From Taxawa tesnikishii (nom. ined.) (Eukaryota > Ascomycota > Dothideomycetes > Dothideales), in assembly GCA_030247885.1 (NCBI GenBank), contig JAPDRO010000024.1:62001-126000 (forward strand): a stretch of 64,000 nucleotides of DNA, given 5' to 3'. This document shows positions 5,481 through 59,475 of the stretch, piece by piece. The position numbers and the translations under genes are program-made. The first letter of the stretch is position 1; every line of letters starts with the position of its first letter. Below the pieces are notes generated by a model. The model saw only the letters and a list, made by a program, of their open reading frames with translations. It searched no databases and was not told the origin of the DNA.

Positions 5481-7556
5481 TTACTCCTCCTTCTTTTCAC
5501 TCCCACTACTTCCATTACTCTCCACCCTAGTCCTTCCCTCCTCCTCGTCCCTCTGCCGCTTCCGGTCCTGCTCAATATCCGGCGCCGGCGCGAACTTGCT
5601 CTTCGCCCTGATCTTCTTTCCATAAAAGTAGAAGATGAATGGCATGGGCACCAGCAGCGCGCTCAAACAACCCAAGAACGTCATACCCCAGTTGATCCCG
5701 ATCCCGTCGTACATGTAGGTCGCGAAGAGTGGGAACACGGCGCCGAAGATGGAGCGGAGGAAGGTGTTGGCGGCAATGGCGGAGGCGGCGAACATGAGGT
5801 AAGAGTCGATGATGTAATTGAGAAGTTGCAGGAAGACGGTGTAGATGCCAAAGCCGAGGGCGAGGCCGGCGAGAGTGGGGACGATCCATGGGATTGAGGG
5901 CGTGAAGCCGGTCCAGCCAAACCAGAAGAGGCCTGTGATAGAGAAGCCGTGTCAGTGCCTTAACATGAGCCAGTGTGAGTGGGAGAGATGCCTACCAATC
6001 GTGAAGAAAACTCCGCCGAACATGGGCAGGATGAGACGCCATTCTGGGACTGGGATGTTGTTGTTGGCATCCAACTTCCTGGCGTAGTCACGATTGAGCA
6101 GGACCGTCAACGCCAATCCGGTCGTCACGCCGATTACCATCCCGATGTAAGGCAGGCCGGATACTCCAAGACTGAAGCCGTAGATCTGGCCAAACACGAT
6201 AGCGTACGCGGTAAGCGAGAGATACAGAATTCCGTACAGGAAACTCATATAAAAGGTAACGAGCAGGACGATCGGCTCCGTAAACAGGATTCTCAAAGGT
6301 CTACTGACGTTTTTCGATACAAGTTGTTTGAAGTCGACTTCGACCTCTTCCTGCTTAGCGTGAATGCCCCAGTTGTGCGTTAGACGGCGCAGCTCCGCGG
6401 CTTTGTCAACGAGGATTATGGGACCGTAGGACTCTTTTTGGTATAAGAGGGCTAGTGCTGCTGCGGCAAAGCCCATGAAGGCGGGGATATACTGGGTCCA
6501 GCGCCAGCCCAGATAGGATTTGGTGATGAAGCCACCCACCATAGGGGCCAAGAGAGGGCCGTTGAAGATGGTACCGGAGAACACTGCGACTGCTAAACCA
6601 CGGACCTGTACAGCTGTGTTAATCTTTGGTATGATCTTAGAGGCATGATCAGCATACCTTGTTGCTGTACATGTCAGCAAACACAGCCGGACAGACTGTA
6701 AGCGCACAAGCTCCAAAAATCCTGCGAAGAAGCGACAGATCATGACAGTTTGCAAGTCTTTGGCAACCGCGACAGCGATCTCAAAGATAGCGAAACCGAA
6801 AGCTGCAGAGATGATGGGTAACCTCCTTCCATAAAGCTCTGACATCGGTGCCCAAACGATAGGTCCAAAAGCATAACCCAAGACGAACAAAGATGTTCCG
6901 AGTGTAGTAACCTCCTGCCCAACATGGAAATGCCTTCCCACTGCAGAGGCAGCTGGTGAAAAAACCGAAGAAGCAAAGGTTGCGGCAAGTGAGTCGAAGA
7001 TAAGGATAGCAGTAATACCCAGCTTTGTTTTCAGACTCCAGTTCTGTGCGTGACATGGATCGTCGGGGCCGCTGAACTCCACAACGTACTCTTCCCTTTC
7101 GGGCAGCATCGGTGGATACCCTTTTCCACCACCGAAATCCGGAAGAGTCTTGGTGGCTTGCTTCTCTGCTGGGGTGCGCATGGAGCCTACAGTTTGCATG
7201 TGCTGCAGTCGGTGTGCTTCGAATCGCTCTACAGACGTGGGATGCCGGTCCAGGTACTCGAACACGGCTCGTTCCCGCATTGTGGATGTGGCGCGCAGCA
7301 TTCCCAAGTCCGCTCGCGCTCGGGCGGTCTGAGTGATTGAAGATCTGGAGGAGCATGAGGAACTTGAACTTGATGCAGTATTCTGGCGATTGAGTTCCAC
7401 TTCTTCGCGGCGTTCTTCCTGCTCTGTGGGTATCTGTAACGGTTGTGTCGTCCCATATCTACCTGGAATTGGGTCCTGAGGGTTGTTTGTGTGGTAACGA
7501 TCGGCATCGCGCTCCGCGCCGACGACTTCAGTGTCTTTGTTGTCCATGCGTGCCAT
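5481..7556 (-). CDS. MFS transporter, DHA1 / polyamine-drug type
   Basis: Exons 7556-6658, 6605-5996 and 5932-5481; introns 6606-6657 (52 nt) and 5933-5995 (63 nt). After a ~170-residue cytoplasmic N-terminus with a Ser run come 12 predicted membrane segments. Family motifs are NWSLKTKLGITAILIFDS (TM1), the A-loop SELYGRRLPI, FGACALTVCPAVFADMYSNK and PLLAPMVGGFI (TM5 motif C). These fit the fungal Tpo1/Flu1-like proton antiporters that export polyamines, antifungals or other small cations; the true substrate is unknown. Frame is lost at an A5 run (6715-6719, T5 in coding sense), where one extra base restores the conserved FFAGFFGACAL block; total is then 654 codons. By chance the 52 nt intron read through together with that missing base leaves a long open frame, so an automatic model could wrongly call this region intronless. 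The charged tail ends ...EKKEE. Confidence 0.82.
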
Positions 7557-10345: not shown

Positions 10346-13300
10346 ATGGCACCTGGCCTTGTCGAGCCGCATCCCGCGGTTTCGAACGAAGCTACACGTT
10401 CCCTTGCCTCGGTCACAGAGGACTACGATGATACCATAAGATTTTACCTGAACGGCACAAAAGTGGTTCTGGACACGGCAGATCCAGAAGTTACCGTGCT
10501 CGAATATTTGCGTGGTATCGGTTTGACTGGTACGAAGCTCGGTTGTGCAGAGGGAGGATGTGGAGCGTGTACGGTCGTCGTTTCTCAACTGAATCCGACC
10601 ACCAAGAAGATATATCATGCCTCTGTAAATGCTTGTCTGGCGCCTCTGGTCAGCGTGGATGGGAAGCATGTGATTACAGTGGAAGGCATTGGAAACACGA
10701 AGCGACCGCATCCTGCGCAGGAGCGCATAGCTAAAAGCAATGGCAGTCAGTGCGGATTCTGCACGCCCGGCATTGTCATGGTGAGGAGGCCTGAAGGGGA
10801 AACGTCCAGTGCTTGCTAACGAGACACAGAGCCTATACGCCCTCCTTCGTAACGACCCCGATCCGTCAGAGCTGCATGTAGAAGAGGCCTTCGATGGCAA
10901 CCTCTGCCGATGTACCGGATACAGGCCAATCCTCGACGCTGCTCAGTCTTTTAGCGCTGAGAGAGCCTGCGGCAAGTCCAGTGCCAATGGTGGAAGTGGT
11001 TGCTGTATGGAGAATGGCAACGCGAATGGTGGTGGATGCTGCAAGAACGGCGCAAATGGTGTGGATGGCGATTCGCAACCGATCAAGCGGTTTACTCCCC
11101 AGGCTTTATCGAGTACAACCCAGACACTCAGCTCATCTTCCCTCCTGCCCTAAAGAACCACCAGCTGAAGCCATTAGCTTTTGGAAACAAGCGCAAGAGA
11201 TGGTTTAGGCCGGTCACACTCCAGCAGCTCCTTGAGATCAAGAGCGCATACCCTTCTGCCAAGATCATTGGTGGAAGCACAGAAACACAAATCGAAGTCA
11301 AGTTCAAGGCCATGCAATACACAGCATCAGTCTACGTGGGAGACATCGCGGAATTACGGCAGTACAAGTTCCACGACGATTATCTCGAGATTGGCGGTAA
11401 CGTGGTTCTGACCGATCTGGAGAACATTGCACAGGAGGCTGTCAAGCACTACGGCGAAGCTAGAGGCCAGCCATTCAAGGCTATCTACAAGCAAATCCGG
11501 TATTTTGCAGGAAGGCAAATCAGGAATGTTGGCACGCCTGCCGGAAATCTTGCCACAGCATCTCCAATTTCTGATCTCAACCCGGTCTTCATGGCGACCA
11601 ACGCCGTACTGGTTGCGAAATCTCTCGACAAGATCACGGAGATCAAAATGTCGGAGTTCTTCAAGGCTTACAGGGTTACTGCGCTGGAGCCAGACCAGAT
11701 CATCGCAAGCATCCGGATACCAGTCTTCCGCGAGGAAGGGAGCACATGCGCGCATACAAGATGGCTAAGAGAAAAGATGATGATATCGCCATCGTCAACG
11801 CCGCTCTTCGCGTAGCACTTGACGATGGCAACAATGTCGAAAACTGCAGTCTTGTGTACGGTGGTATGGCACCCATCACGATCTCTGCAAAGAACGCTGT
11901 GGAATTCCTGCAAGGCAAGAAATTCACAGACCCCAAGACGCTCGAGGGTGTCATGAACGCTCTTGAGCAGGACTTTGATCTCCGATTTGGTGTTCCTGGT
12001 GGCATGGCTACCTACCGTAAAACATTGGCCCTCGGCTTCTTCTACCGGTATTACTACGAGATTCTTTCGGAACTGCCTTCGGTCAAATCTGCTGAGATTG
12101 ACCAGGATGCGCTGGGTGAGATTGAGCGGATGATCTCGTACGGAAAGAAAGACCATGAAGCTGGCGCAAGGTACGAAAAGAAGATCATAGGAAAGGAAGC
12201 TCCACACGTTGCGGCCATGAAACAGTCCACCGGTGAGGCACAGTACACCGACGACATTCCAGTGCAGAAGAACGAACTGTATGGATGCCTCGTTCTCTCC
12301 ACCAAGGCACATGCTAAACTCCTCAACGTCGACCCCTCCCCTGCTCTAGACCTTCCAGGCGTTGTAGACTACGTTAACCACAAAGACCTGCCCAGTCCCG
12401 AGGTCAACTGGTGGGGTGCTCCAGCCTGTGATGAGACCTTCTTCGCCGTCGACGAAGTTTTCACCGCAGGACAACCGATCGGTATGATCCTTGCCAACAC
12501 CGCGAAGCAAGCTGAAGCTGGTGCTCGAGCGGTGTTGATTGAGTACGAGGAACTCCCCGCCATCTTTACTATTGAAGAAGCCATCCTGGCGGAGAGTTAC
12601 TTCCAGCATTACAGGTACATCAAGAACGGCGATGTCGAGAAGGCGTTTGAAGAGGCCGACCATGTCTTCACTGGCGTTGCGCGTATGGGCGGACAAGAGC
12701 ACTTCTACCTCGAGACTAACGCGTGCGTGGTCGTACCTAAGCCAGAGGATGGAGAGATAGAGGTGTTCAGCAGTACTCAGAACCCAGCCGAGACGTACGT
12801 TTGGAAGCATATCCGTGAGCAAAATCCGAGCTAACAGCAATGCAGGCAGGCATACGTCGCCCGAGTCACTGGTGTTGCGGCCAACAAGGTGGTCACTCGC
12901 GTCAAGCGGATGGGTGGAGGCTTCGGTGGCAAGGAAACCCGTTCGATTCAGCTTGCTGGTATCTGCGCGACCGCCGCTCGCAAGGTCAACCGACCTGTTC
13001 GCTGCATGCTGAACCGTGACGAGGATATCTTGACATCCGGACAAAGACATCCTTTCCTCGCTCGTTGGAAGGTCGCAGTCAACAAGGATGGCAAGCTTCA
13101 AGCGCTCGATGCGGATGTCTTTAACAACGGCGGCTGGAGCCAAGATCTGAGTGGCGCGGTCGTGGAGCGCGCACTGTCGCACATTGACAACGTATACAAG
13201 ATCCCCAATGTCTACGTCCGAGGCCGCATCGCTAAAACCAACACCGTATCGAACACGGCTTTCCGTGGTTTCGGCGGTCCCCAGGGAATGTTCATTGCGG

Positions 13301-14528
13301 AAACGTACATGACGGAGGTTGCGGATCACCTCAACATTCCCGTCGAGCGTCTCCGCGAGATCAACATGTACAAAGCCCACGAAACGACGCACTACCACCA
13401 AGAACTGAAGGATTGGTACGTGCCACTAATGTTCAAGCAAGTGTTGGAGGAATCCGACTACGCACGGCGGCAGCAAGAAGTGGCAGCCTTCAACTCCAAG
13501 AGCAAGTGGAAGAAGCGCGGCATGGCGATCGTACCGACCAAGTTCGGCATCTCCTTCACCGCGCTCTTCCTCAACCAAGCGGGCGCGCTCGTGCACATCT
13601 ACCACGACGGCTCCGTGCTCGTCGCGCATGGCGGCACGGAGATGGGCCAAGGCCTGCACACCAAAATGTGCATGATCGCGGCCGAAGCGCTGCAGGTGCC
13701 GCAGGACAACGTCTTCATCTCCGAAACGGCGACCAATACCGTCGCCAACGCGTCCTCGACCGCCGCATCCGCCTCGTCGGACCTTAACGGCTACGCCATC
13801 TTCAACGCATGCGAACAGTTGAACGAGCGCCTGCGTCCGTACCGTGAGAAGATGCCCGGGGCCAGCATGAAGGAGCTCGCCCATGCAGCCTACTTCGATC
13901 GGGTTAACCTCTCCGCTCAAGGCTTCTACCGTACCCCTGATATTGGGTACGTCTGGGGGGAGAACAAGGGTCAAATGTTCTTCTACTTCACGCAGGGCGT
14001 GGCAGCTGCAGAGGTAGAGATTGACACACTAACCGGTGACTGGACGCCTCTGCGTGCCGACATCAAGATGGACGTCGGACGCACCATCAATCCATCTATC
14101 GATTACGGGCAGATCGAGGGTGCGTTCGTGCAGGGCATGGGCCTCTTCACCATGGAGGAATCGCTGTGGCACCGCGGCTCCGGCACCATCTTCACGCGCG
14201 GGCCCGGCGCGTATAAGATCCCCGGCTTCCGCGACATTCCGCAAGAGTTCAACGTCGGCTTGCTGAAGGATGTCGAGTGGGAGAACCTGAGGACGATTCA
14301 GCGGTCCAGAGGCGTGGGCGAGCCGCCGTTGTTCATGGGCAGTGCGGTTTTCTTCGCCATCAGGGATGCGTTGAAGGCGGCGAGGAAGCAATGGGGTGAG
14401 GAGGCAGTATTGAGTCTCAGGAGCCCGGCTACGGTGGAGAGGATTAGGGTCAGTTGTGCGGATCCGATCCTCAAGAGGGCGCATGTGGAGCCTAAGGAGG
14501 GGAGAAGAGCTTTTTCGTTGCTATCTAG
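10346..14528 (+). CDS. hxA: Xanthine dehydrogenase (purine hydroxylase I)
   Basis: Oxidises hypoxanthine and xanthine to uric acid with NAD+, letting the fungus use purines as nitrogen source. ATG 10346; introns 10781-10829 (49 nt) and 12795-12845 (51 nt). Domain order: N-terminal 2Fe-2S ([13 protein letters not shown]), helical 2Fe-2S ([18 protein letters not shown]), a Cys/Asn/Gly-rich linker often seen in fungal enzymes, FAD domain ([14 protein letters not shown]), then molybdenum-cofactor domain ([41 protein letters not shown]) with the catalytic Glu in GVGEPP. Three sites each lack one base: the GG at 11102-11103 (linker to FAD domain), GGG at 11738-11740, and GGGG at 14499-14502. With these the length is 1361 residues, normal for the family, and the protein ends [10 protein letters not shown] at TAG 14526-14528. 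All catalytic motifs are present, so the breaks look like sequence errors. Confidence 0.93.
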
Positions 14529-15631
14529 AGGGGGAAGAGTATGTGGTGGGGAAGAAGAGGATCGTGCGGGTCAGCGGGGTGTTTGAGTGTGATCGAGGTT
14601 GTGGCTATGAGTAACTTGAACGAAGCGACCTTTTGCCTCACACGTTCCTCATGCTGTGGCAGGCCACGATCCATCTCAAACCTTCCCCTTTGATGACCAG
14701 CAGAGAGCTGATACTCCCAATGGGGCAACGTGCCGGCGAGAAAAGTCCATTCCTATCGCCTCGAAGCATGGAACATGACTGAGGCGGGCTCCGTGCTTGC
14801 AAGAATCTTTGCGTATGGAGGAAAGAGGGTGAACGCACGATGTTTCGAGTGAATCACGCCAACGGAGGCGGCAAGGGCTCTGCATGCCGAGGAGATTTCT
14901 GCCGTGACAGAAGTCAAACGCGCACGTGCTGGGCGCTTGATGTTCTGTGTGTGGCAGACAGTCAAGCATTCACATGCTCTCCGACTGCACGAGGGCATCG
15001 CATGCGATAAAGGCTAGCACTGCCGCTGCCGTACAACAGCACATGATCCGTCTATCATAATCCTCACCGCTTTGGCTAGGGTTAGGTCTGGAGCCCGTAT
15101 TATCAGGGCCCTCCTTCAACCTAAACTTCTCTTCGTCTTGCACCCCACCCAATCGGTCTCGCGGTCTTTCAGCACGGTATTCAACTGCTTTGTTAGGGAG
15201 CCGAACCCTGACTGGCCTTCAAGCATCGAGGGATTCCAGATACTTAGGCGACAAATGCATGTTGGTTGGAGTCCTCAACCCCGATTGTATCCCCTGCGCC
15301 GGAGTATTTGATTGTGGAAAGATCGAGCATCGATTGTGAATTCGGGTATCCTCTACTAAAAGTCATCCAGTCTCATGTTCAGGCTCAGGCACGCCCGGTT
15401 TGATCTGCACATCAGAGCAACACCCCGTTCCAGTTCCCAATCCCTTGTTCCACACAAACTCTGAAGTGTGTCCCCCTTCCCACCCCCGACTGATATCGCC
15501 ATAGCCGTTTTGTGGAACTTGTCCCAGTCAAGGGAATACTGTCGATGCCGTCCCTTCTGAGCGCCCTCTGTCATTGCCGACCGTCCAACTCCACGTTCTG
15601 CCATTATCGCCGTCTGCGTCCGTCACGTCCC
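14529..15631. other. Convergent intergenic region
   Basis: 1.1 kb between the 3' ends of xanthine dehydrogenase (+) and the RBR gene (-). Short open frames on both strands have no family features. No tRNA, repeat or mobile element seen. Confidence 0.5.
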
Positions 15632-17789: not shown

Positions 17790-18285
17790 ATGTCCGCCAT
17801 CCGTGTCCCTCGCATACTCAGCCTGCGCCCCTCCCAACTCCACCTCTCCCGCCGCACCTTCAGCACCACCCTCACCTCACGCTCCGCCTGGTCTCCCGGT
17901 CCCTCGCCTCCCCGCCTTCCAAAGAGGAGCAAGAGCTCTTCGAAAAGCTCCAACGCCAGTCCACCGGCGCATTCAGCACGCCGCGCACCGACACTTCCGC
18001 GACCGATCTCGCGCCGCCCACGTCCACACCTACCTCCCGGCCTCAGATCAATCAGAGCCCAGCCAGCGCATCACGGCAGGAGGAGACGGGGCAGTTCAGC
18101 AGTGTGAAAGTGGACGCAAGGGGGAGGGCGACGAGCTGCACCCGAACGCGCGACGGGGCGCGCCGCCGGAGTTCGAGGGCGACGTCAATCCCAAGACGGG
18201 CGAAGTGGGTGGGCCGAAGAACGAGCCGCTCAGATGGGGGCATGCGGGCGATTGGAGTTACAACGGACGCGTGACGGATTTTTAA
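17790..18285 (+). CDS. SDH8: Succinate dehydrogenase assembly factor 4 (SDHAF4/Sdh8), mitochondrial
   Basis: Small mitochondrial matrix chaperone that binds flavinylated Sdh1 and helps join it to Sdh2. The C-terminal ~50 residues are diagnostic (DUF1674): HPNARRGAPPEFEGD, NPKTGEVGGPKNEPLRWG and the terminal GDWSYNGRVTDF, ending at TAA 18283-18285. The N-terminus from ATG 17790 is rich in Arg and Ser (RRTFSTTLTSRS), as expected of a mitochondrial presequence. Two one-base breaks lie between: at the AAA run 17921-17923 (restored reading gives PRLPKEEQELFEKLQ) and the G5 run 18120-18124 (gives VDARGEGDELHPN). With them the gene is 166 codons, a normal size. No intron. Confidence 0.88.
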
Positions 18286-20701: not shown

Positions 20702-23356
20702 CTACTCCTCTTCACTGCTCTCGCTGTCATCATCGTCGCTGCTTTCCGCAGCTGCAGCAGGTGCAGCAGTAGCGGTGGCCTGGGCAGCGGCTGGGCCTCC
20801 TGACATCTGTGCGAGTTGCTCCCTGAGCGCCTTGATGCTTGCTTCCTGCTCGTGCTTCTTCATCGGCTTGTGCTTCTTGCGGACGTTGCCGGTGGCGCGG
20901 GCGTTGCGCTCGGGCTCATAGTCATCATCGACGTTCATCTCCTCCTCGTCAGGAGTCGCGCGCTCCTTTGGGAAGATCTTGCGAACGTATTGGAGCAGCT
21001 TGTGCTGGACGTCGTTGGGAAGTTCATCAATCTCGAGCTCCATGTCTTCGCCCATATCCTGCATCTGCGTTAGTTTGGCAACACAATGTCAACGGAAAGC
21101 AGTCGACTCACATTATACTTAGGCACGTTCTCAGCGATGATCTGAGTGAGCTTCTGAACTTGCGACTCGGACATTTTCTCCGTCGCGCTAGAGATTTCTT
21201 GCTTCTCCTCATAAGTGACCTGACGCTGCTTCTTTGCCTTTGGTTTAGGAGCGGCACGAGGTGCTGGAGTGGGCAATGTACTGGCCTTCTTGGTCTTTCC
21301 ATTGCCCTTGCTCTTCTTCTTACCACCAGCTTTGGGCGAAGAGCGCTTGGATTGACTCATGGTCTGGAGAGTGTTTTGTAGAGCCGAGATCTGTTGCTGT
21401 AGCATCTGGATCTGTGCGTCGTTTGCGTCGTGCTCCTCTTCATCTTCCTCTGCGTCAGATTCGTCGCTGGAGGCCTCTGATATTGGTCTTGAAACCGGGG
21501 GCCGCTCAAACTTCTTGACCCAGGCGTCCTTCTTCACCCAATCCTTATCGAACTCACTCTGCAGGTCCACAGCAAACGCATAAATAGGGTTTTGTGGCCC
21601 ATTGAACTTCTTGCAGTTCTCGATCATGAGGTCAAAATCCGCCTTAAACTCGCGATCACTGGCGTACTGGCCGCCCTTCAGCTTCTGGCCCATCGTTTGG
21701 AGATCCATGGGATGCTTTATTATGCTGAAGTAATGAGGGATCTGAAGCGCCACGGGATCGACAGGTACCAGGAAAGGTTCAGTGAGCTTTTTGTATTTCG
21801 GCTTCTTCTTGAGCTCCTCCATCATGTGCTCACAGAACTTCAGACCAGCGGCAGCGTCCTTTCTCTTTGGCTTTGCCGCAGCGTAAGGCAAATCGCGCGA
21901 GGCTGGTGGCACGACGGCACGCTTGGGCCGGTCAGCCGTAGAATCGCGCCTGATGAGGGGTGTGCCATTTGGCTGAAGTGCATAAGTGTCTCCCGTCGCG
22001 GCTGAGTGGGTGACACCTGCACCAGGCTTCGACTGCCTACGCGCGGCAGACTGCTTCGGAGCGGGTGGTGGTTGCTTCTTCGTGGCGACACCTTTTGGAG
22101 GATGTGCAGCGGCATTTCCCGTAGGAATGCTCTCCATTTGCTTCATGAAATAAGCTCTCATGCTCAGAGCAGAAGCGGTGACGTTGTGCGCCGGTCCATT
22201 GAACTTCTGGCAGTTCTCAACCATCAACTCGAAATCTGCAACCAGGTCATCCATGCATGTGTAATCGTCGTTCTTGAGCTTCTTCTCTATCGTACTGAGG
22301 TCCATTGGATGCTTGATTATATCCGGGTAATGAGGAATGTTGAGAGCAACGTAGTCAACAGGTCTCAGGAACCAGAACGCAGATTTCACCTTCTTGGTGT
22401 TTTTCAATTTTTCCATAAGAGCGTTCTTCTGTGTGGTGGTGATTGGGGACTTGCTGAAAGAACGCGACGGCCGATTGGCGGTACTATCGCCGTTCGTAGC
22501 CGGTGAGGCGACTGGTGCGGTGGTTGGCGCATCCGGCTGTTTGAACTCGAGCACCTGGTCGTTAGTCGCCTCTCCTGTCTTTGCGCGCTTCGCGGCTGGT
22601 TCCCCGTTGTTTCGTCGTCTTCTCGCTGCCGAACGGTGCCAGATGCGAGGGCGTCTTGCATCGTCTGATCTGCGTCCGGGACAGGCGCGGAGGCAGCCGT
22701 CGCCTCAGCATCTGGTGCAGAAGTTACAGAAGTAGGTTGTGCGGTCTGATCTGGCAAGTCCTTGACATCCTCACCAGGTGGCGGCGCAAGAGTGTCCGTT
22801 GCGGCAGCTTTATCTGATGCAGTCGCGTTTGCGACAGACACTGAGCTCGACGAGTCCGCCGGTACAGGGATATCATTCGGCGCCGAAGCGGGCGCATCTG
22901 TCATGGCGGCATCTGGGTTGATATCGGCAGCGTCAGTTGCCAGTGGCTGGGACGGTGGCGGCGTGGAGTGATTCAGCTTGGCGTCGGACGGTATGAATTG
23001 CGCGACTCCGTCGATGCCACTTGAAGTACCTGCGATAGGCTCTGTTGATGCAGGTTGTTGATCTAAAGGCTCATTCATGGTAGCGGGTGGAGTAGGTTCC
23101 TGCGTGTCCCGCTTGGCGGAGTCCGCCTGCGGCTGGTCCTCGCCAAAGAGTTCATCACTGTTTTCATTTGCTGTGGGAGGTACTGTCTGATCGGCGACAC
23201 TGTAAATTTATTCGATAAGTACATTTCATGGAGTGAATGAGCAGTGAGCGACAGAATGAGAAACAGGGAAGCAAAGGCAACAGAAGGGAACAAGGACCGG
23301 CGCACTCACCTGTTGATGCTTTCCATCTCAGGTGGTGGCGCTGCATCCAACGACAT
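20702..23356 (-). CDS. BDF1: Double-bromodomain BET family protein (Bdf1-like)
   Basis: Reads acetylated histone H4 and helps recruit TFIID in the nucleus. Exons 23356-23310, 23199-21112 and 21064-20702; introns 23200-23309 and 21065-21111. After a ~190-residue disordered Ala/Pro/Asp-rich N-terminus come bromodomain 1 (FLRPVDYVALNIPHYPDIIK, HPMDLSTIEKKL, ENCQKFNGP), bromodomain 2 (FLVPVDPVALQIPHYFSIIK, HPMDLQTMGQKL, ENCKKFNGP), an acidic Ser patch (SSDESDAEEDEEE), a Lys-rich stretch, and the NET domain split by the last intron (VTYEEKQEIS, LPNDVQHKLLQYVRKIFP). The two acetyl-lysine Asn residues are in the FNGP motifs. The tail ends in SSDDDDSESSEEE. One break at the CCCC run 22602-22605 (one more C restores ETTGEPAAKRAKTGE) gives 833 codons. 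Confidence 0.92.
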
Positions 23357-24431
23357 GATGGAGTGATGAAGAGGGACACGTGACCGTGATTGGTAGTGAA
23401 AGCGCGACGGGATTTTATGGAAACGCGAGGGCGTGACGCGCCGGGGGAGAAGGGTATTTATTGAAGGGCAGAGCGATTATTAGAGGTGTGAAGGCGCGCT
23501 TGTGAAAATTATGAACGGAAGTGACTAATGTTTCTGCCGATGGAATCGACTGGCAACAACGATGGACGAGAAAAGCGTGCGTACAGCCGGGGCGCAGTTT
23601 GACGTGTTGCGACGCGGACGAAGTACGGCTTAAATTTCGAAGGTCCGAGGGAGAGATGCAGAAGTTGTTTCGCGCGCCAGGAAGAAATATAGCCTGGCCG
23701 ATAGTGCCACTAAAAACGGATCACGTGAAGGTTTGCGAGTTGGTACGTGTCCCGAACTCCCGCCCAGCCGCAACTCTGCGAACGCTGTGCTCAAAGTGAT
23801 TGCAGTTTGCCCGCCGGAGCTCCGAGACGCGCGTTTGTCCTGCCTTCACTCGACTGCGTGAGAGTGATGCCTGCAGTTCCGCAGTTGGTGCAGAAGATGG
23901 CTGTGGTTGTGGGATACTTTGTAGTGATGACCTGATCAAGCTAGCCACCGCCGCAAGCCCCGAAAACAAAACTTGACATATGACCGGCGTGCCGTATGTC
24001 TTGACCAGAAAAGTTTTCTGGGGACCGGATCACCCACAAAGCCGGCGAGTTGATGTGTCTGTTGAAGGCAAGAATGATTTGGACTCGAGCACACAACTCG
24101 TTCTGGTCTTGAAAGTGTTGAGTGAGTGAGTGCTGTTTATGGGTGTGATGATTACCTGCCGGGAGCAGCGAAACTTGCCGGCTGCCAGTCGTTCGTGACG
24201 GGAGGCGCAGGGGTTGGCCGTTGACCGAATATTGATCGCATTTCTTGGCAAGGAAAAAGCTCGGACGTCCCGCTAGTCTCACTTCGCTCTCTGAAAGTTT
24301 TCCGCGCGCCCTGTGAGCGCAAGAGAGAGCTTTCTGTGCAGGAGACCGCGAACACACCACACCGTCGCGGGCAGAACACCCACGCTATATTACCCTACCA
24401 CTGTACACCTTAGGACGTTCATGCTGTCGCG
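23357..24431. other. Divergent intergenic region, BDF1 (-) / Utp12-domain gene (+)
   Basis: 1.07 kb between two divergent genes of chromatin and ribosome biogenesis. No gene recognised; minus-strand frames at 23941-24360 look non-coding. No obvious tandem repeats. Confidence 0.5.
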
Positions 24432-32710: not shown

Positions 32711-33450
32711 TCACGCCGCGACCTTGCTCATGCGGCTGCTCAGAATTTCGTACGCCCAATGCAGGCAGGCCGTCATGTTTCCCTGCCCCTCCTTCGGCAT
32801 GGCATGGATGCCCAGCTTCTCACACAACTCTCCATTAAGTGGCCCTTCAACGTCTCCGTTTCGGAATAAAAGGCATGGTCATTGACGTAGTTGGGCCAGA
32901 CCACCTTATCGACGTAACCCGGTGGATCTTCCCAGAAGCCTTCTAGAGTCACGTAGCCAGATCTCGCCTCCCTCCGCGCTTTCGCAGTCTTGTAATCGGT
33001 GCGAAGAAACAATTTGATGTCAAAGAGATCGCGGACGGCCTTCATCTCTTCCGAGAACAACAGGAAGCCATCGATGATGGCAACAGATGGACCAGGCCTG
33101 CCATGCAAGGATACATGGGTTCGTTTCTTCAATTGTTCGACCACATCTTTGTTGACACCGGCTTCGCCAACGGAGTTCTGGTCTTCCTTTGACTGGAAAT
33201 CCGGTGGCAGCGCCCCTTTATCCTTGATGAACTTGAGCGTCTGTTCGAACTCCGGCAGGTTGATTGATTCGAGACAGTCCCAGTCTGCAACTCCGTTCTT
33301 GATTGGAATCTCCTTGTCCGTCTTGTAAAAGTCGTCTTCGTGCAGAATGAACGTATTTGGGATGATGTCTCGGAGAAGCCGGGCTAACGTCGTCTTGCCG
33401 GAAGATGACACACCGCTGATTCCAACGAGCAGACACCTTCTCGTGCTCAT
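32711..33450 (-). CDS. NRK1: Nicotinamide riboside kinase (NRK)
   Basis: Phosphorylates nicotinamide riboside to NMN for NAD+ salvage. ATG 33450; P-loop GISGVSSSGKTTLARLL at residues ~10-26, ILHEDDFYKTD with the substrate-binding Asp, DWDCLESIN, VAIIDGFLLF, FLRTDYKTAKARREAR (lid region) and GYVDKVVWPNYVNDH. One base is missing at the AAAA run 32868-32871 (T4 in coding sense): restored, the end reads FLFRNGDVEGPLNGELCEK, then LGIHAMPKEG and TACLHWAYEILSSRMSKV, and stops at TGA 32713-32711. Length is then 246 residues, normal. No intron. Soluble cytosolic enzyme. Confidence 0.9.
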
Positions 33451-40355: not shown

Positions 40356-40366
40356 TTTTCGTTTTT
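40356..40366 (+). terminator. Pol III T-run terminator of tRNA-Gly
   Basis: TTTT then CG then TTTTT begins 17 bp after the tRNA 3' end, with further T runs downstream. Confidence 0.75.
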
Positions 40367-43600: not shown

Positions 43601-44140
43601 GCAAGAACGAGAATGTCGTACGGAACTGTGGTGCCTTGGGAAGTCTCCACAATCTTGTTCTTGGAATCGATAGATGTGACAAGGGTATTGAGGTGGTAGT
43701 TGAGAGAGCCTTCCGGCATCGACGAGTACTGCAGGCCCGCTGTCAGCATGCCAATCGCATCGCTCGCGCTTCCAACTCTCGACTTACCCATTCTTTGGGG
43801 TTTAGGTACAGGTTCTCAACTTGCCGGTGCTGGAAGAAGCTGGTCAAGCCGACTCTGTTGTAGGCCAAGTGCGCCTCTTCGCCAATGACTATGATGTCGT
43901 ACTCTCTCCGCTTGATATCCAGCTTCATGAGCTTCTCTCTGTTGTGCTGCGCTCAGTTTCCGTCACTGCGTGGTTCAGGTGCATTATGAGCTTACATGAA
44001 GGCAACGCCAACCATTCCCAGTCCAACGACTACTATGCGCTTTCTCTTGGTATCCTTGGGAAGCTCCCTGTCTTTTCCATCTCCTCGATCTTCTCAGGCA
44101 GCACGTTGGCCTCGGCATCGTTCCACTCGCTGTTACTCAT
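40673..44140 (-). CDS. niiA: Nitrite reductase [NAD(P)H], assimilatory
   Basis: Reduces nitrite to ammonium. ATG 44140; exons 44140-43996, 43938-43788 and 43728-40673; introns 43939-43995 (57 nt) and 43729-43787 (59 nt). Domains in order: FAD/NAD pyridine oxidoreductase ([11 protein letters not shown] near residue 40, [37 protein letters not shown]); BFD-like 2Fe-2S ([22 protein letters not shown]); ferredoxin half-domain and siroheme/4Fe-4S core ([33 protein letters not shown]); and a C-terminal Rieske-like domain ([25 protein letters not shown]). Two one-base breaks: near 44079-44085 (restored [18 protein letters not shown]) and GG 41520-41521 (restored [15 protein letters not shown]), giving 1117 residues. 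Divergently paired with niaD across 1289 bp, the usual fungal nitrate arrangement. Confidence 0.95.
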
Positions 44141-45429: not shown

Positions 45430-48208
45430 ATGTCTCACACCACTACCACAAGCACGACGACTACGGGAACCGAGGAGGATGTAAGGCATCTTCGAAGGGT
45501 GTCCGCCGACCTGCCGCCAACTCCGCCAGATTCAGATCACAGCGATGCCGAGAAACAAGACGCGAGTGACTATCCGCTACCACCGGACTCCAAAGCACCG
45601 ACCGACGTGCTCGACATCGACAAGAAGACACCGGACGGCTGGCTGCCCAGAGATCCCAGGTTAATCCGGCTAACAGGCGTGCATCCCTTCAACGTGGAGG
45701 CGCCGCTTACGGATCTGTTCAACGAAGGCTTTCTCACCAGCCCAGAACTGTTCTACGTTCGGAACCACGGTGCCGTCCCGCAGGTCAACGATGAGGATAT
45801 TCCGGACTGGGAGTTCACAGTTGAGGGGTGAGCACTCTCCTGCAAGGAAAGACGGCTGGAATATCGTTGCTGATTGTCGGATAGCTTGGTGGAGAACCCG
45901 CTCAAACTGACCTTGCGTGAGCTTATAGCCGATTACCAGCAACAAACGTACCCTATCACGCTCGTGTGCGCTGGTAACAGACGAAAAGAGCAAAACGTAG
46001 TCCGGAAAACCAAGGGCTTCTCATGGGGAGCGGCAGGTGTATCTACCGCCCTCTTCACGGGCGTGGCGCTCCGTGACGTCTTGAAGAAGGCAAAACCCAA
46101 GCGCGGGGCTCGCTACGTCTGCATGGAGGGCGCAGATAAGCTGCCCAACGGATACTACGGGACCTCGGTAAAGCTGAGCTGGGCGGTAGACCCGGAGAAG
46201 GGGATGATGCTGGCGCACCGTATGAACGGAGAGATGTTAAGGCCGGACCATGGCAAGCCGTTGCGGGTGGTGATCCCTGGACAGATTGGTGGACGCAGCG
46301 TCAAATGGCTGAAGAAGCTCATCATTACTGATGTGCCGAGCGACAACTGGTATCATATCTACGACAACAGGGTGCTGCCAACGATGGTCTCGCCCGAGGA
46401 GTCTGCAAACAACAAGGCTTGGTGGATGGATGAGAGATATGCCATCTACGATCTTTCGAATAACTCTGCCATCGCATATCCTGCGCACGAGGAGCAGCTT
46501 TGCCTGGTTGGCGCACCACGGTCTTACCGAGTCAAGGGTTACGCGTACGGTGGAGGCGGCCGTCGGATCACCCGTGTTGAGGTCACATTAGACAAGGGCA
46601 AGTCGTGGCGACTAGCCAGCATTGACTACGCTGAAGACCGCTACCGGGAAGCTGGTGTGCAGAACCTGTTTGGTGGACATTTAGATATGGTGTACCGCGA
46701 CGCGTCTTTCTGCTGGTGCTTCTGGAATATTGACGTTCAGGTCTCCGAGCTGGCGTCAGCAAAGGATATCATGGTCAGGACGATGGATGAGAGCATGAAC
46801 ATACAACCGAGAGACATGTACTGGAGCGTGCTCGGCATGATGAACAACCCGTGGTTCAGAGTTACGATCAGCCAAGAGAAGGACTACCTGCGCTTCGAGC
46901 ACCCTACGCAACCAGCGCTGATTCCAGGCGGATGGATGGAGAGGGTGAAGAAGGCAGGCGGAAACCTCAGTAACGGTTACTGGGGCGAGCAGATTGGTGG
47001 CGAGGAGGCACCGGAGCCGGTCACAGAGGCGGCAGGAGAAGTCAGGATGACGAAAAACGGTCTGGACAAGATCGTCACGATTGACGATCTGAGGAAGCAC
47101 GACACGGAGCAGGAGCCGTGGTTTGTGGTCAATGGCGAGGTTTACGACGGCACGGCTTTCTTGAAGGAGCATCCAGGCGGAGCGCAGAGTATCGTGTCCG
47201 CAGCAGGTCTCGACAGCACGGATGAGTTCATGGCGATCCGTAAGTTGCATGCCTTTCCAACCGGGAACACAGAGGGCAAGCTGACAACTTGACAGACAGC
47301 GAGACCGCCAAGGGAATGATGCCATCCTACCACATCGGCACACTGGATGAGGAAGGCAAGAAAGCGCTGGCAGGCGAAGACGTGCAGCCCGACCCGACAG
47401 CCCAGCCTACAGCCACCTTCCTCGACTCACGGAACTGGAAGAAGGCGATCCTGCACACCAAGCAAACAGTGTCGTGGGACACGCGCATCCTCTCCTTCCA
47501 GTTAGAGCACGGAGAGCAGACGCTCGGACTGCCGACTGGTCAGCACCTGATGATCCGGCTACGCGATCCAGTCACTCGAGAGGCTATCATCCGGTCGTAC
47601 ACTCCGATCTCTGAGACGTCGAAGAATGGATTCATGGACGTGCTCGTGAAGATCTACTTCGACACCAAAGAGCGTGCGGGTGGCAAGATGAGCCAAGCCA
47701 TGGACTCTCTTCCCATCGGACACTTTGTCGACTTCAAAGGCCCGATTGGAAAGTTCCAGTACTTGGGCAAAGGACGGTGTGCCGTCAATGGCGTCGAGCG
47801 TCACGTCAAGCAGTTCGTTATGATCAGTGGTGGCAGCGGCATCACGCCCATCTACCAGGTCTTCCGCGCCGTCATGCAGGACAAGGAAGACAAGACCAAG
47901 TGCACCGTACTCAACGGGAATAGACTGATTGAGGATATCCTCTGCAAGGAGGATCTCGATGCGTATGCCAAGGATAACGAGGAGAAGTGCAAGCTGCTGT
48001 ACACCCTCACCAAGGCCCCCGACGACTGGACTGGGCTCAGAGGACGTATTGCTGGCCCGTTGCTCGCTGAGCATGCGAGCAAGGAGGTGCTCAAGTGCGC
48101 CGAGGGGAGGTCATGGTGCTGATTTGCGGGCCTGAAGCGTTGGAAAAAGCGGTGCACAAGGCGCTGCTGGAGCAGGGATGGAAAGACGACGAGTTGTTGT
48201 TTTTCTAG
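45430..48208 (+). CDS. niaD: Nitrate reductase [NADPH], assimilatory
   Basis: Reduces nitrate to nitrite. ATG 45430; introns 45828-45884 (57 nt) and 47240-47295 (56 nt). Order: Ser/Thr/Asp-rich N-terminus; sulfite-oxidase-type Mo-pterin domain (FYVRNHGAVP; LVCAGNRRKEQN with the Mo-ligand Cys at ~161; GYYGTSVKLSW); dimerisation domain to ~520 (NIDVQVSELAS, MYWSVLGMMNNPWFRV); cytochrome b5 (EHPGGAQSI at ~560 with one heme His); FAD-binding (IIRSYTPISE); and NAD(P)H-binding (ISGGSGITPIYQV). One base is missing in GGGG 48105-48108; restored EGEVMVLICGPEALEKAV leads to the normal C-terminus DDELLFF at TAG 48206-48208 and 888 residues. As written it would stop ~30 residues early and lose the conserved C-terminal Phe. 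No crnA-type nitrate transporter lies in this window. Confidence 0.95.
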
Positions 48209-50404: not shown

Positions 50405-52195
50405 ATGTCTGCCACTCGTCATGCCCCCGAGGGTCAGTCTACCCCTTCTCCCGCATCTGTCGCAGGTGTTGTGCTGACGGACTGTATCGCAGGCCAAATC
50501 CCACACACCTCCACCACCCAGAACAACGCGGAAAGTGAGAGTATGCCACTGCCAGCTGCCGCTGCCGCATGCTCTCCGGACCCATCTTACCTCCCTGATG
50601 TAGATCTGGCTGACCAATGTTCTCTTACAGTGCCTTCTCAATATCCCGTCTCACCCCGCTCTCTAGAAGTAGCCGAAGGCGCGGCCGCGTTGGTGGAGTT
50701 GTCGGAGGCTCTTGTCGTCCATGACACGCCCTCTGCTGCGCACACCTCCACCTTCGCGGCCATCAACGTCCCCGACACTCGTGAAGAGGGAGTGGGCAAT
50801 GCTCCCGCCTGCGCCAGCGCTTTGCCTGGCAATGGCACTGCTACGGCCGCCGCTGACTCTATCGAAGGCGTCTTGCGGCAGGAGCTCTTGAAGGCCGGAT
50901 ACCCTGCTGGCCAGCAGATGGTGTCTCGTGAAGCCATCTCATCGGCTGCCGCCACCGCCGCCTCGAAGAACTATGACGAGACCAGCGACGTGGACGACAG
51001 CGGCTTCGTTGAGGGTGAGATGAGCTTCAAGGAGGATGTTGGCGAACCCTCTCCTGCCGCGAACCGCACATCCCGCCCTCACAGCACCTCCCTTGTCGGA
51101 TCTAATCTTCGACCCGCGCCCTCCGCTTTGGAACAGCACCTTGGGAAGCGCAAGCAGCAGTTCGGAGACACCGTCCATCCACCGGACTCTACTGACCAGG
51201 GAGATGACGATGACGATGAGATGGCCAGATATCGGTCTGGTCCAGACATCTTCTCGATGCCAGGCAACATGGGCACGCAGACCTTCCGCCATCCGCCCAG
51301 CACCGCCGGCCGCCCACCCTCGTTGCAGACATCGCAGTACAGCCTGCCGATCAAAGGTCAGCGTGGAGACAAGAACATCGATGCCCGTATTTCCGACATG
51401 ATGGCAAGTGGCATGTCATGCAAGCAGACCGCTGATCAATTCAACGCCGAGCTGCGCACACATGGTTTCGATGGTAATTGGACGCAAAACGGTATGTCTG
51501 ATATCCACAAGGCTGCGTGAGACGAGACTGACGCAAAAACGTAGCGATCTACAACCGATACGATCGCATGGGCGGCATGACCAAGGCGAAGATGCAGAAG
51601 CTGCAGAAGCAGCAGGCGGGCGGTGGAACGCAGCAGCAGAGCCGCAAGCCGGCCAAGCGTGTCAAGACGAACGTCAAGACTGCGGGAGTCAGTGTTATGC
51701 CTGCGACTGCTACCACAGGTGCGCCTGCTTTCGCTGGTGCCATGCCGGCGTACAACGCAACCGGCTTCGCCGCCCAGCCCACCGCCAGCATCGGTGCTCC
51801 CACCATGGGCTCCTTCCACGCCTATCCCCCGTCAACCCTCCGGCCACTGGCTATTCCAACACCGACCCACTCAACGTCTACGCCTCCTCTTACCCACTCA
51901 TCGCCCAACAGCCTGCGCCACAGCAGGTCCCATCAGTTCGTGGCAAGCAGGGCCACGCACGCAGGCCTTCGGCCGTTCCTTTCTCGGTTGCGGAGACCCA
52001 ATACCGCGCCTCAGTCACCCCTGCTAGCCACCCGGACCGCCTAATGTTTGACGCTCAGGAGGACAAGATCCTGCAAGACATCTTCGGCACAATGCAGATA
52101 AATTTTTCTACCAGGTGGCTGAGCTGTTCAACAAGTACACCGGCCGTGATGTCAGCGCAGAAGAGGTTGAGGCTAGGATCCGCCAGTTGGAGTAG
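50405..52195 (+). CDS. Unrecognised fungal protein with Asp-rich region and C-terminal helices
   Basis: ATG 50405; intron 51492-51544 (53 nt). The N-terminal ~300 residues are low-complexity Ala/Ser/Thr/Pro with an acidic run (DQGDDDDDEMARY, ~265). A conserved-looking block at ~325-375 reads DARISDMMASGMSCKQTADQ, FNAELRTHGFDGNWTQNAIY and NRYDRMGGM, like a small helical DNA-binding or SANT/HTH-type module. A Gln/Lys-rich stretch follows, and the C-terminus (YQVAELFNKYTGRDVSAEEV, EARIRQLE) looks like a second short helical module. Two one-base breaks: C5 51826-51830 (restored YPPVNPPATGYSNTD) and T5 52103-52107, giving 580 codons to TAG 52193-52195. A transcription-related role is possible but not shown. 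Confidence 0.6.
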
Positions 52196-52940: not shown

Positions 52941-55900
52941 ATGCTGTCAGCCTTCAAGGCTCAGCCCATCGTCGAGCTCAAGCAGCGGGACAAGTCTAAG
53001 ATCGAATCCGTCCTTGCATATGGTTCGCATACAATGTATCATCCCCGCTACACTGCACTGTACTGATCTCTGCTATTAGGCGACCGGCTACTTGTAGGTC
53101 TCAATACCGGCAGCCTCCGCATATACCGCGTGAACGAGCCCAGTAACGAACCCCAAGACGATAATGGAGACGACGCGGCGCCGGCACCCACCAAGGCGCG
53201 CGCTGTCGACTTGCTGCGCGAGGAAGAGAAGTTCTCGCGTCGTCCAATTCAGCAGCTTGCCATAATCAAGGAAGCGAACATCCTGGTTTCCCTTACCGAC
53301 AACTACGTCTCCATTCACGATCTCCAAACACATGCGCTACAAGAGAAGCTCGAGAAGACCCGCGGCGCCAGCTCTTTCGCCGTGACATCTAATGTGGTCA
53401 AAGATCCGGAAAGTGGCATTCCGAGCCTGGTGTCGCGCCTGGCTGTTGCTGTGAAGCGGAAGATCATACTGTGGAATTGGCAGGACATGGAGCTGGCACC
53501 GAAAACACAGGAGATATCTCTGCCCGCGAGCGTCAAGAGCTTGACATGGGCGACCGGAACAAGAGTTGTCGCAGGCATGGATCCGGGCTTCTCGCTGGTG
53601 GACGTGGATAGCGGAGAAATCACGGACATCAACAAGCCAGGCGCAGCTGGGGAGGCAGCAGGACAAGCCGGTGTGCGCTTCGCAGCCGTCAACTCCTCTG
53701 GTATGGGATACATGGGCATGGGCAGCTGGGTCCCTAAGCCTATGGCTACGAAGCTTGCCGAAGGTCAGATGCTACTCGCGAAAGACGTCAATACACTCTT
53801 CATAGATACGGATGGCAAGGCGCTGGACAAGAGACAGATCCCATGGGCAGTGGCACCAGAGGCTATTGGGTACTCTTATCCGTACCTGCTGGCGCTGCAG
53901 CAGTCTAGCAGGGGCGCCTTGGACGTACGCAATCCCGACACGCTTTCTCTTCTGCAGACAATCGCTCTGCCAAATGCTTCTTCGCTACATGTCCCTCAGC
54001 CAAACATCAGCCTTGCGCATGCCGGAAAGGGCTTTTGGTCGCAAGCGACCGCTGTATATGGAGAATGGGTGCGTTAGGTTATGAAGCACAGATCGAAGAG
54101 CTCGTGCACAAGCAGAAGTACGATGAGGCTATCAGTCTGCTCAACATGCTAGAGGACACTTTGTTGAAGGATAAGGAGGGCCAGATCAGGGAGATCAGGA
54201 TTCATAAGGCTTCGGCTCTGTTTGCGCAGCAGAAGTACAGACCTGCTCTCGATCTGTTCACAGATGCCGCCGCGCCGCCGGAGAGGGTCATCTCACTATA
54301 TCCAAAGTCTATTGCTGGTGACCTTTCTTCCATCGAGACTGAAGAGACGAGCGAAGTCGAGGCCTCAACGGAAGAGGCAGAACCGAACGGAGATAGTCAA
54401 ACAAGACCCGACGATACGCCGAAAGAACAGCCGGCGACCCCTCAGAAGTCCATGATTGGAAAGCTCAAGGGTGGGAAGAAGGTTGATTCGGATGCTGCGT
54501 CTATTCGATCTGTCAGGATGGACAGTGACAACATGAGCATCCGTGGGAAACCGTCTAAGCCTGCCGACAAGCCTTTGGGTACGGTCTTCGCACTGTGTCA
54601 AATTTGGATTATACTGACTCGATTGCAGAAGGCAATGACTTGAAGGCTGCAGTACTCGCTCTGGTTTCCTTCCTTGCGCAGTCACGCGTGCAGATACAGC
54701 GATACATCAACACAGACGGAACGCTCAAAGATGCGGCTAGATCCGGTGAAGACTCTCCCACCGGCAAGCCGCCTTTCGCGAATCTCATCAAGCTCCCTGA
54801 TGATCTCGAGAACATCGACTGGCAAGCGGAGCTGCTCAAGGTCGCTCAACTAGTCGACACCACCCTTTTCCGGTCTTATATGTACGCCTTGCCTTCCCTT
54901 GCAGGCCCACTCTTCCGCCTTGACAATTTTTGCGACCCCGAAGTTGTCGAAGAGAAGCTGTACGAGAGCGGCAGATATACCGATCTCATCGACTTCCTGC
55001 ACGGCAAGAAGCTACATCGCGAAGCTCTGGAGCTACTTGAGAAATTCGGCCGCAACGAGGCTGCTGAAGAGGTTATGCCTGCACTGAGGGGACCCGGTCG
55101 CACCGTGGGTTACCTGCAACAGCTACCGCCGGAACTAATTGACATCATCCTTGAGTATGCAGAATGGCCAATTAGGACAAACCCGGACATGGGTATGGAG
55201 ATCTTCCTGGCGGACACTTACAATGCAGAGAACCTACCCAAGAACAAGGTTCTGGATTTCCTTATGCCATTGGATCGCGATCTGGCGATCAGGTATTTAG
55301 AGCATATCATCAATGAGCTCAACGATGCCACGCCAGATTTCCATCAGCGTCTGGTGGATCTTTACCTGGAAAAGACAAAAGCCCATGACTCTGTCGGCGC
55401 GGAAGAGAGGGGAAAGTTCGCAACAAACTCGAGGATTTCCTACGCAACAGCACTCAGTACAATAAGGTCAAGACGTTCAGACAACTCCCTACAGACGGTA
55501 AGTTTTCTCCCGCCAGGAAGGCAGAATTCAAAGCACAGCGCCTCACTAACCACAAAACTCCAGACCCAGACTTCTTCGAATCCCGCGCCGTCGTACTGTC
55601 CGCGATGGGCAATCACAAGCAAGCTCTCTCCATCTACGTCTTCCAAATCCGCGACTTCTCCAAAGCCGAAGACTACTGCAACCGCGTCTACCTCGCTTCC
55701 CAACAAGCCCATCCAACGCCCTCGCCAACCACGAACACCAACGAAAAACCCTTCGTACCCTTCGACCCGGAAGACTCCACCCCCAACATATACACCATTC
55801 TGCTCGGCCTATACCTGCGTCCCCCGCCCCGAACCAGGTCAACTGGCCGCCCGCACTGGACCTCTTGAGCAAGCACGGCGCGCGTCTCCCCGCCTCCAGC

Positions 55901-56287
55901 ACCCTCGAACTCATACCCGGGGACCTGCAGATCCGGGAACTGGAGCGCTATTTCCGGGGCCGGATGCGCAACGCCAACAGCGTGCTGAACGAGGAACGCA
56001 TCGTGCGCGGCCTCGAGGGCGTGCGCAAGGTCGACGTCGAGCGCGAGCTCCTGCTCGGCAAGGAGGCTGGTGCTCCAAAGGGCCCCTCGCGCGGCGCCGG
56101 CAGGAACAGGAGGGTCGTCATCAGGGACGACGATCATTGTAGGGTTTGCCATAAACGCTTCGGCGCCAGTGCCGTCAGGGTCTATCCGGATGGCGAGGTC
56201 GTGCACTACGGATGCGTGGGCAGGAGTGGGGTTAGGAGACAGGGCGCGAGTGATTTCGGCGGCATGAGGATCGCGAACTGGGCTTGA
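52941..56287 (+). CDS. VAM6: Vacuolar sorting protein Vps39/Vam6 (HOPS and vCLAMP subunit)
   Basis: HOPS subunit that binds Rab7/Ypt7 for vacuole fusion and also tethers vacuole to mitochondria. ATG 52941; introns 53023-53079, 54579-54628 and 55498-55563. N-terminal CNH/beta-propeller half (FKAQPIVELK, RLLVGLNTGSLRIYRV, QQLAIIKEANILVSLTDNYV), middle helical repeats (LVHKQKYDEAISLLNMLEDT, LYESGRYTDLIDFLHGKK) and the Vps39 C-terminal zinc-finger-like part (DDHCRVCHKRFGASAVRVYP, VVHYGC). Three one-base breaks: TTTT 54033-54036 (restored GKGFLVASDRCIWRMG), GGGG 55409-55412 (restored EERGKVRNKLEDFLRN) and CCCC 55827-55830 (restored PPPPNQVNWPPALDLL); 1058 residues in total. No missing domain once frames are read through. 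Confidence 0.92.
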
Positions 56288-56954: not shown

Positions 56955-59475
56955 TCACGCGTCATCCATGCTCACGTCACCCTCGGTGTAGTTGACCTTT
57001 GCTTTGCTGGCCCTGTTGCTCTTCCTGCTGCCCGCAGCCCGCTTCTTCGGCAACGGCGTGTCAGGCTCCTCGGCATCCGACTCGAGCACAGGGTCATTAA
57101 GGTCCTCCTCGTCCTCCTCGGCATCGCTCGTCGACGGCGTCGGCACTTCCTTCGCCTCCTTCTTCGCCTTCTTCTTGTTATTGTTGTTCTTCTTCGGCTT
57201 GGCGGTTGCGGTTGCGGTTGCGGTTGCGGCTCCATCATCCGCCACGCCGTCCTCGAGTAGCGCGCTGGCTTTTGCCTTGGCAGCCGCTGCGCGGTTCTTG
57301 AGCGCCTGCTTCGCCTTCTTCGTCGCCGGCGTGGCGTCCTCGTCGCTCTCGGGCCCGTCCTCTTCCTTCACTACCGCCTCCAGACTGGCGGCCTGAGCTG
57401 CGGCTTCGGCCGCGGCGGCGGCCTTTTCTTCTGCGCGGGCGTGAGCTTCTTCTCCTCGCCGGGCTCTTTCTTTTGATCTCGCGCTTCTTCGGCCTCAGCC
57501 AATCTTCCATGCCGATCGGCCAATACACTCGGCCTTCGGGCCCACCCATCCCGACCTCTTCGTCCGGGATTGTTGTCGGTCCGGCCTCGACCGCGGCGGC
57601 TGCGGCGGACGCCACTTCGTCCTCGTCTTCCTCCTCCTGCTTGGCTTTCTTGCCTTTTTGGGCGTAGCTTTTTCTTCTTGCCTGCGGCTTGCATGGCGGC
57701 CTTGTTGTCATCATTGCGCACGTGTGGGATCACGTCGTTGAAAGTGTCGAATCCTGGCAGCTTAAACGTCTTCATCAGCTCGAAGACGGCTTGTTCTTTG
57801 TCCTTTGCCTCGATCATGAGGTCCATGTCGTTCGCACAGGGCGGCAACGACCACACGCGCGGGTTGTGTTTGCGTCGCTGTCGGCCTGTGATCGCGGCGG
57901 GCGTCGGCTCCGAGTAGTGCATCTTCTGTGTGATACCCTTGCGCGTCCAGGTCGCCTTGATGCGCGGGAACAGCTCCATGATGTCCTTGGTTCCTTCTCG
58001 GATCTGTGTCGAGTCAAAGACGATGTTATGGTGGTGGAAATCCAGCACGAGCGGAATATTGAGTTCCTCGCATATTGGGAGGAGATCGTGCACGCTGTAG
58101 CATACATCGTCGTTCTCGAGGACCAGACGGTTCTTGATGGATTGTGACAGTTTGGCGTAGTTTTCTCGGAAGCGATCGAGGGTCGCTGCTTTGTCGCCGA
58201 AAATGCCGCCCATATGCAAGATCATGACGGCGTCTTTGTCCTGTTGTTCGGGCAGTTTGAGAAGCGAGAGCAGCTCGTCATGGTATTCAAGATCTCGGAA
58301 GGCGTTGTCGATGACCTGTTTCCGTGGCGAGCCTAGCTGAGTGAACTGACCAGGATGCGTGGTCACACGGTGACCTAGTTCTGCAATGACCTTGCCTGCT
58401 TCTGCGAGCGCTTCGGCCGCGAAGGGAGCGAGCTTGTACCCGTACTCGGGGTGAGAGGCAAATGGGAACATCTCGCTCGAAAGACGGAAGAACATGATGT
58501 TGTACCTGTCGTTCCAGCGAATCATCTTGATAATGTCGCGTGCGTTCGCCAAACCAATCTCTTCAACATACTTCTGACCAAGCGTTACATCAGCGGGCTG
58601 TTCTCGATCTGGCCGATTCTTGGTCGGGTGCTCTGGTTGCGAAGGGTCCTTGAGTGGATGGCGGTGTTCAAGAATTGATGCGATGCGGCAGGTACGGGAA
58701 GAGAAAACCGGCGGAGTACTGTAACGCAGATATGTATTCAAGCACGCCTAATCCTGTTAGTAGCGGGGCCATAGTAGGTGCTGATTGTAGAGCTTACATA
58801 GCCTATGCGACCCTTCCATGGAAGAGGGAGATAATCACTGTTAACAGGAGGAGGGCGCGACAGGGCTTCCTGCAATTCTTCCTCATTGGCTTCTTCGTCG
58901 CCTTCTGCCTCTGGATCACCCATATCACCGTGTTCGCCCTTGGTCTGCGCTTTCGCGGCTGGCGGCGTCTTCGGTGTCGCCGCTGTTGCATCTCCATTCT
59001 CCTTCGCCGCCGTAGCACCCTTCTTCGCGGCAGCTTTTCCAGCCACCCTTTTCTTCTTGGGTGGTTCTACCTCGACCTCTGGTACGTCGGACAGCGGCGA
59101 CTCTGATCCATCATCACGCTTTACAGCACCCGGCGCAATGTCCTCGTTGACATCACTGTCAGGGGAAGCACGAAGGGCATCTGGAGCATCGATGATCTCG
59201 CCGTTCTCCTGAGGATTTGTCAAGACCTTCTCTGCGTTCCGTGCAGACGATCTTCGCTTGGGAGCCTTTGGACGTGGTGGTGGAGGCATAGAGCCGCCAT
59301 GCATTGGAGCACCAGACGCTGTATCGATGGCTGCTGCTGCCGCTGCAGCAATATCTCTCTTGCGCTTCGCTGCCATTGTTGCGGAAAGAGGGGAGTGAGC
59401 GCTGAACAGAAGGAATGCAGGGGCCTGTCTGATGGGTAGAGATCTCAGTCCACGAGATCGGAGAGCACCAAGCAT
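56955..59475 (-). CDS. uve1: UV damage endonuclease (UVDE/Uve1) with long basic-acidic tail
   Basis: Nicks DNA 5' of UV photoproducts, starting an excision pathway independent of NER. ATG 59475; exons 59475-58798 and 58747-56955, intron 58748-58797 (50 nt). After a ~210-residue disordered N-terminus the TIM-barrel starts at GRIGYACLNTYLRY; metal-site blocks include RLSSEMFPFASHPEYGY, RVTTHPGQFTQLGSP, ILHMGGIFGDKAATL, LVLENDDVCYSVHDL, LDFHHHNI and MHYSEPTP. The C-terminal ~230 residues after the barrel are a Lys/Ala/Glu-rich tail with EVGMGGPEGRVYWPIGMEDW and an (Ala-Thr)4 run encoded by a GCGGTT repeat at 57203-57229. Four one-base breaks lie in that tail (near 57669-57673, 57652, 57467-57469 and 57424-57427); with them 825 codons. 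The leader from ATG 59475 looks like a mitochondrial presequence; a second ATG at 59376 starts MAAKRKRD. Confidence 0.88.
57203..57229. repeat. Hexanucleotide (GCGGTT)n inside the UVDE tail
   Basis: Four GCGGTT units plus a partial one. Length is a multiple of three per unit pair of codons, so changes in copy number keep frame and alter an Ala-Thr run. Confidence 0.85.

What the first reader, a model, noticed from the sequence alone, without database searches (positions are those of the whole stretch)
6715..57673. One-base frame breaks, mostly at short homopolymers, in about two thirds of the genes
I find about 25 sites in 16 protein genes (e.g. 6715-6719, 11102, 11738, 14499, 18120, 22602, 24491, 24892, 32868, 36763, 48105, 51826, 54033, 55827). 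At nearly all of them one more copy of an existing base restores conserved family sequence and, summed per gene, a length divisible by three. Essential genes (Vps39, BET, Utp5-like) and non-essential ones are hit alike. Losses always one base in G, C, A or T runs of 2-6 argue for systematic under-calling of homopolymers in the assembly, not for mass gene death or programmed frameshifting. Any protein set from this assembly would be badly truncated.
Basis: partly seen in the sequence, partly recalled or inferred. Interest (0 to 1): 0.72.

Follow-up and report, generated by a model that had tools for sequence, protein, structure and literature searches.

The report
Sequencing errors breaking fungal gene frames
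Many genes in this stretch of a fungal genome look broken because the assembly has dropped single letters, often next to runs of the same letter, which is a known sequencing fault and most likely not a property of the organism.

Summary
The window lies in an unnamed 29.4-Mb assembly of 34 contigs, fungal by its genes. A frame-tracking model with introns and equal penalties for both directions frame switches in the window, 14 in the sense of one missing base. At five junctions one protein family or solved chain continues in the next frame with no room for an intron, always in the loss sense. In 24 other stretches (220 kb) the count is 34 losses to 5 gains. Runs of four or more lie in 26 of 48 loss intervals, 21% expected. 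G/C runs collapse at length six in coding and non-coding DNA alike. In-phase slippery heptamers are not enriched (1 of 48). Best reading: long-read consensus errors, probably nanopore-type and not adequately polished with short reads; platform unknown.

The parts
6642..6792 (-). frame change in an MFS transporter gene, loss sense
   Evidence: three-frame reading only; MFS_1 match; the model fitted introns here instead
11059..11104 (+). possible break, xanthine dehydrogenase gene; an intron is a live alternative
   Evidence: three-frame reading; model intron 11059-11102; chain matches on either side do not meet
11737..11740 (+). break in the xanthine dehydrogenase gene, loss sense
   Evidence: chain 6adj_A position 414 reached from both frames; model switch, 80% interval 11704-11739
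14424..14574 (+). frame change near the 3' end of the xanthine dehydrogenase gene, loss sense
   Evidence: three-frame reading only, recalled family C-terminus
18108..18122 (+). break just upstream of a DUF1674 domain, loss sense
   Evidence: model switch; DUF1674 in the downstream frame
22593..22614 (-). break in the bromodomain/BET gene, loss sense
   Evidence: model switch; domains all in the downstream frame
24416..24566 (+). frame change near the start of the Utp12-domain (Utp5-like) gene, loss sense
   Evidence: three-frame reading only
24891..24929 (+). break in the Utp12-domain gene, loss sense
   Evidence: model switch; Utp12 in the downstream frame
27437..27501 (+). break in an unnamed gene, loss sense
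   Evidence: model switch; no family match on either piece
30715..30737 (+). break in an unnamed gene, loss sense
   Evidence: model switch; no family match on the pieces
32793..32943 (-). frame change in a P-loop kinase-like gene, loss sense
   Evidence: three-frame reading; weak AAA_18/PRK match
35275..35290 (+). break inside an ARMH3_C domain, loss sense
   Evidence: profile 1-105 in one frame, 101-229 in the next, overlapping; model switch
36763..36772 (+). break inside a DUF726 domain, loss sense
   Evidence: profile 5-39 in one frame, 41-343 in the next; model switch
41520..41555 (-). break in the nitrite reductase gene, loss sense
   Evidence: model switch; NIR_SIR upstream, Rieske in the other frame downstream
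44066..44080 (-). break near the 5' end of the nitrite reductase gene, loss sense
   Evidence: model switch at the most permissive setting only
48080..48098 (+). break in the NAD domain of the nitrate reductase gene, loss sense
   Evidence: profile to 87 in one frame, from 89 in the next (weak, E 0.06)
51817..51844 (+). break in an unnamed gene, loss sense
   Evidence: model switch; no family match
54020..54041 (+). break in the Vps39-like gene, loss sense
   Evidence: chain 7zty_A reached to 376 in one frame and from 370 in the next
55407..55429 (+). second break in the Vps39-like gene, loss sense
   Evidence: model switch
55752..55902 (+). third frame change in the Vps39-like gene, loss sense
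   Evidence: three-frame reading; zf-Vps39_C in the downstream frame
57414..57501 (-). two loss-sense switches downstream of the UvdE domain; weak
   Evidence: model, middle and permissive settings only
57658..57671 (-). the window's single gain-sense switch, downstream of the UvdE domain
   Evidence: model, all three settings

Best explanation
The breaks are consensus errors of a long-read assembly: runs of identical bases are called one base too short, and some single bases are dropped elsewhere, so coding frames jump about once per 2 kb of coding sequence (power-corrected inference). Shown: the direction bias, the enrichment near runs of four or more, the spread over contigs, and the truncated run lengths in coding and non-coding DNA. 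Inferred: a nanopore-type platform and a consensus without adequate short-read polishing.
For: 14:1 losses to gains in the window and 34:5 in 24 other stretches on 24 contigs, one of them the window's own, with a detector of nearly equal power for both. Runs of four or more in 26 of 48 loss intervals against 21% in random coding intervals, reached by none of 2000 simulations. Five two-sided homology junctions, all in the loss sense, without room for an intron, and a chaperonin gene on C1 that changes frame with a 4-bp overlap at the same profile position. Non-coding G/C runs fall from 62 of length five to 2 of length six (13 to 21 expected); A/T runs of six are 31 against 49 to 57 and of seven 6 against 14 to 18. 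Two copies of one mitochondrial-type segment differ at 5 indel places in 7998 columns, 4 at runs of five or more and one inside a tRNA-Met.
Against: 6 of 54 switches are gains and 22 of 48 loss intervals hold no run above three; three quarters of the location probability falls on positions in runs of one or two, so location is imprecise or a share of losses is not at runs. Long runs exist in places: 16 in L002 and L027, 10 in L028. The published nanopore-only fungal assembly erred more often by over-long runs after polishing. The copy comparison also shows clustered substitutions, so part of it is real variation, and ARAGORN still calls the tRNA in both copies. No fungal genome of known quality was at hand for comparison; no reads were available; 22 of the 24 stretches and the window also trained the model.
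Confidence: 0.95

Rival explanations
1. Introns, not base losses: the frame changes are splice sites that the first reader took for breaks.
For: Short introns are common here; the model fits introns at some listed sites, such as 11059-11102 and 53925-54091. The in-frame stop at 12832-12834 is well explained by an intron.
Against: At five homology junctions the gap is 17 bp or less, or negative; at 54020-54041 homology runs through the model's intron. Introns should shift frames both ways, but 48 of 54 switches go one way.
Confidence: 0.03
2. Genome-wide -1 frameshifting or slippage at runs (ribosome or RNA polymerase) makes full proteins from truly broken frames.
For: The loss sense is the sense that -1 frameshifting would serve, and runs favour slippage (established knowledge).
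Against: In-phase slippery heptamers occur in 1 of 48 intervals, random mean 0.9. Non-coding runs are truncated as well. The Vps39-like gene would need two or three shifts.
Confidence: 0.01
3. Real mass decay: many genes of this strain are pseudogenes.
For: Frames are broken in about 13 to 15 of about 23 genes.
Against: Families match strongly on both sides of breaks, housekeeping genes are hit, and decay would bring gains and in-frame stops as well; here 48 of 54 switches are losses. Decay does not truncate non-coding runs.
Confidence: 0.01

Closest known systems
Nanopore-only fungal assemblies of Drechmeria coniospora (PMC7500977; passages seen)
   Same: Frame breaks at runs; fewer than one sixth of 305 checked genes were full length in the new assemblies; short reads put the lengths right.
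   Different: There, errors after polishing were more often over-long runs; here losses dominate. The platform of the present assembly is not known.
Gene-fragmenting errors in a MinION bacterial assembly (Kastor, PMC12007338; passages seen)
   Same: Most indels are false deletions, most often after runs of four to five.
   Different: Bacterial; there A/T runs dominated, whereas here the sharpest cliff is in G/C runs.
Frequent +1 frameshifting in Euplotes (PMC4759687, PMC10235951; search listing and start of abstract only)
   Same: Many genes need a frame change to be read in full.
   Different: There +1, at stop codons according to the listing; here the -1 sense, near runs, with truncated runs in non-coding DNA.

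Membership tests
Homopolymer-undercall assembly artefact | Losses outnumber gains | tested here: met
   14:1, 34:5
Homopolymer-undercall assembly artefact | Sites enriched at runs | tested here: met
   26 of 48 against 21%; partial, 22 of 48 have no run of four
Homopolymer-undercall assembly artefact | Assembly-wide, coding and non-coding alike | tested here: met
   samples only, 284 kb of 29.4 Mb
Homopolymer-undercall assembly artefact | Hits non-protein genes | tested here: inconclusive
   one tRNA-Met copy lacks a base that the other has; mitochondrial type, and ARAGORN calls both; rRNA searches failed
Homopolymer-undercall assembly artefact | Accurate reads disagree with the consensus | not testable with these tools
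   no reads available
Programmed -1 ribosomal frameshifting | In-phase X XXY YYZ heptamer at the site | tested here: not met
   1 of 48, random mean 0.9; any Y 1 of 48, random mean 1.8
Programmed -1 ribosomal frameshifting | Stimulatory RNA structure downstream | not tested
   not pursued after the heptamer test failed
Pseudogenes | Losses and gains alike, with in-frame stops and relaxed sequence | tested here: not met
   direction bias 48 of 54; strong family matches beside breaks; stops and selection not measured

The most novel reading that the evidence does not exclude
A fungus whose genome really carries run-shortened frames in most genes and makes full proteins by slippage at runs. Sequence alone cannot fully exclude it, but truncated runs in non-coding DNA make it very unlikely.
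Probability: 0.01. Interest if true: 0.95.

Novelty: not a real feature. Interest (0 to 1): 0.08.

Why it matters
As a data-quality warning only: gene sets, gene-loss claims and similarity searches from this assembly would hold many false truncations and false short introns. The direction test used here needs no reference genome and could flag such assemblies.

Tried and rejected
Programmed frameshifting: not borne out by the heptamer test. Mass gene decay: rejected on the direction bias and on strong matches either side of breaks. Introns as sole cause: rejected by five junctions and the 48:6 bias; still possible at 11102. The in-frame stop at 12832-12834 looks like a 51-bp intron (12795-12845), not a break. 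The upstream Utp12-gene piece gave only a chance match to a designed protein. The nitrate reductase tail gave weak matches only (best E 0.36, E 0.06). The Rieske piece of nitrite reductase matched small-subunit proteins but did not reach the break. Genome scans with three families were a weak test: by my count of the table 1 of 14 chaperonin junctions lacks room for an intron; I only looked over. SRP RNA: no match. First training gave low coding contrast, so three penalty settings are reported. Paper searches. Not called at all: search_rna_families, structure prediction, fold search, the search for related loci, the DNA search, search_dna_similar, look_up_taxonomy.

Full report
What was looked at. 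The window is C17:62001-126000 of an assembly of 29,367,862 bases in 34 contigs. Its family matches (nitrite and nitrate reductase side by side and divergent, xanthine dehydrogenase, bromodomain/BET, Utp12, Vps39, UvdE) and its short introns point to a fungus, probably a filamentous ascomycete (recalled arrangement); the species was not identified.

Noticed in passing
G000 contig C25 (80,121 bp), tRNA matches; sample L031: tRNA copies are mirrored about roughly 14106, 38495, 49574 and 60653 (my arithmetic), as if the contig were built of nested inverted copies; the readable arms of the 2.2-kb sample align without internal differences, part of it withheld. Assembly artefact or inverted organelle DNA.
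   Followed up: partly
G000 contigs C26 and C28 (L029/L030, L032/L033, L034/L035): Two copies of one mitochondrial-type segment, differing by run indels and, in one patch of about 650 bases (L032 3263-3901), by clustered substitutions.
   Followed up: partly
L007 (C3:50001-60000) and L024 (C20:50001-60000): AT-rich stretches (GC 0.32 and 0.28) with little coding signal in an otherwise 49 to 57% GC sample of 10-kb stretches.
   Followed up: no
L002 (168) and L027 (774): Isolated runs of 16 T and 16 G in an assembly that otherwise rarely exceeds runs of 7; PMC7500977 describes long runs introduced by polishing (passages).
   Followed up: no
L028 (C34:1-5000), about 1296-1400: T runs about every 24 to 25 bases near the start of the contig, as in a tandem repeat.
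   Followed up: no
window 40262-48208: Divergent nitrite and nitrate reductase genes with a tRNA-Gly at 40262-40339 beside them; both reductase genes are frame-broken in the assembly.
   Followed up: partly
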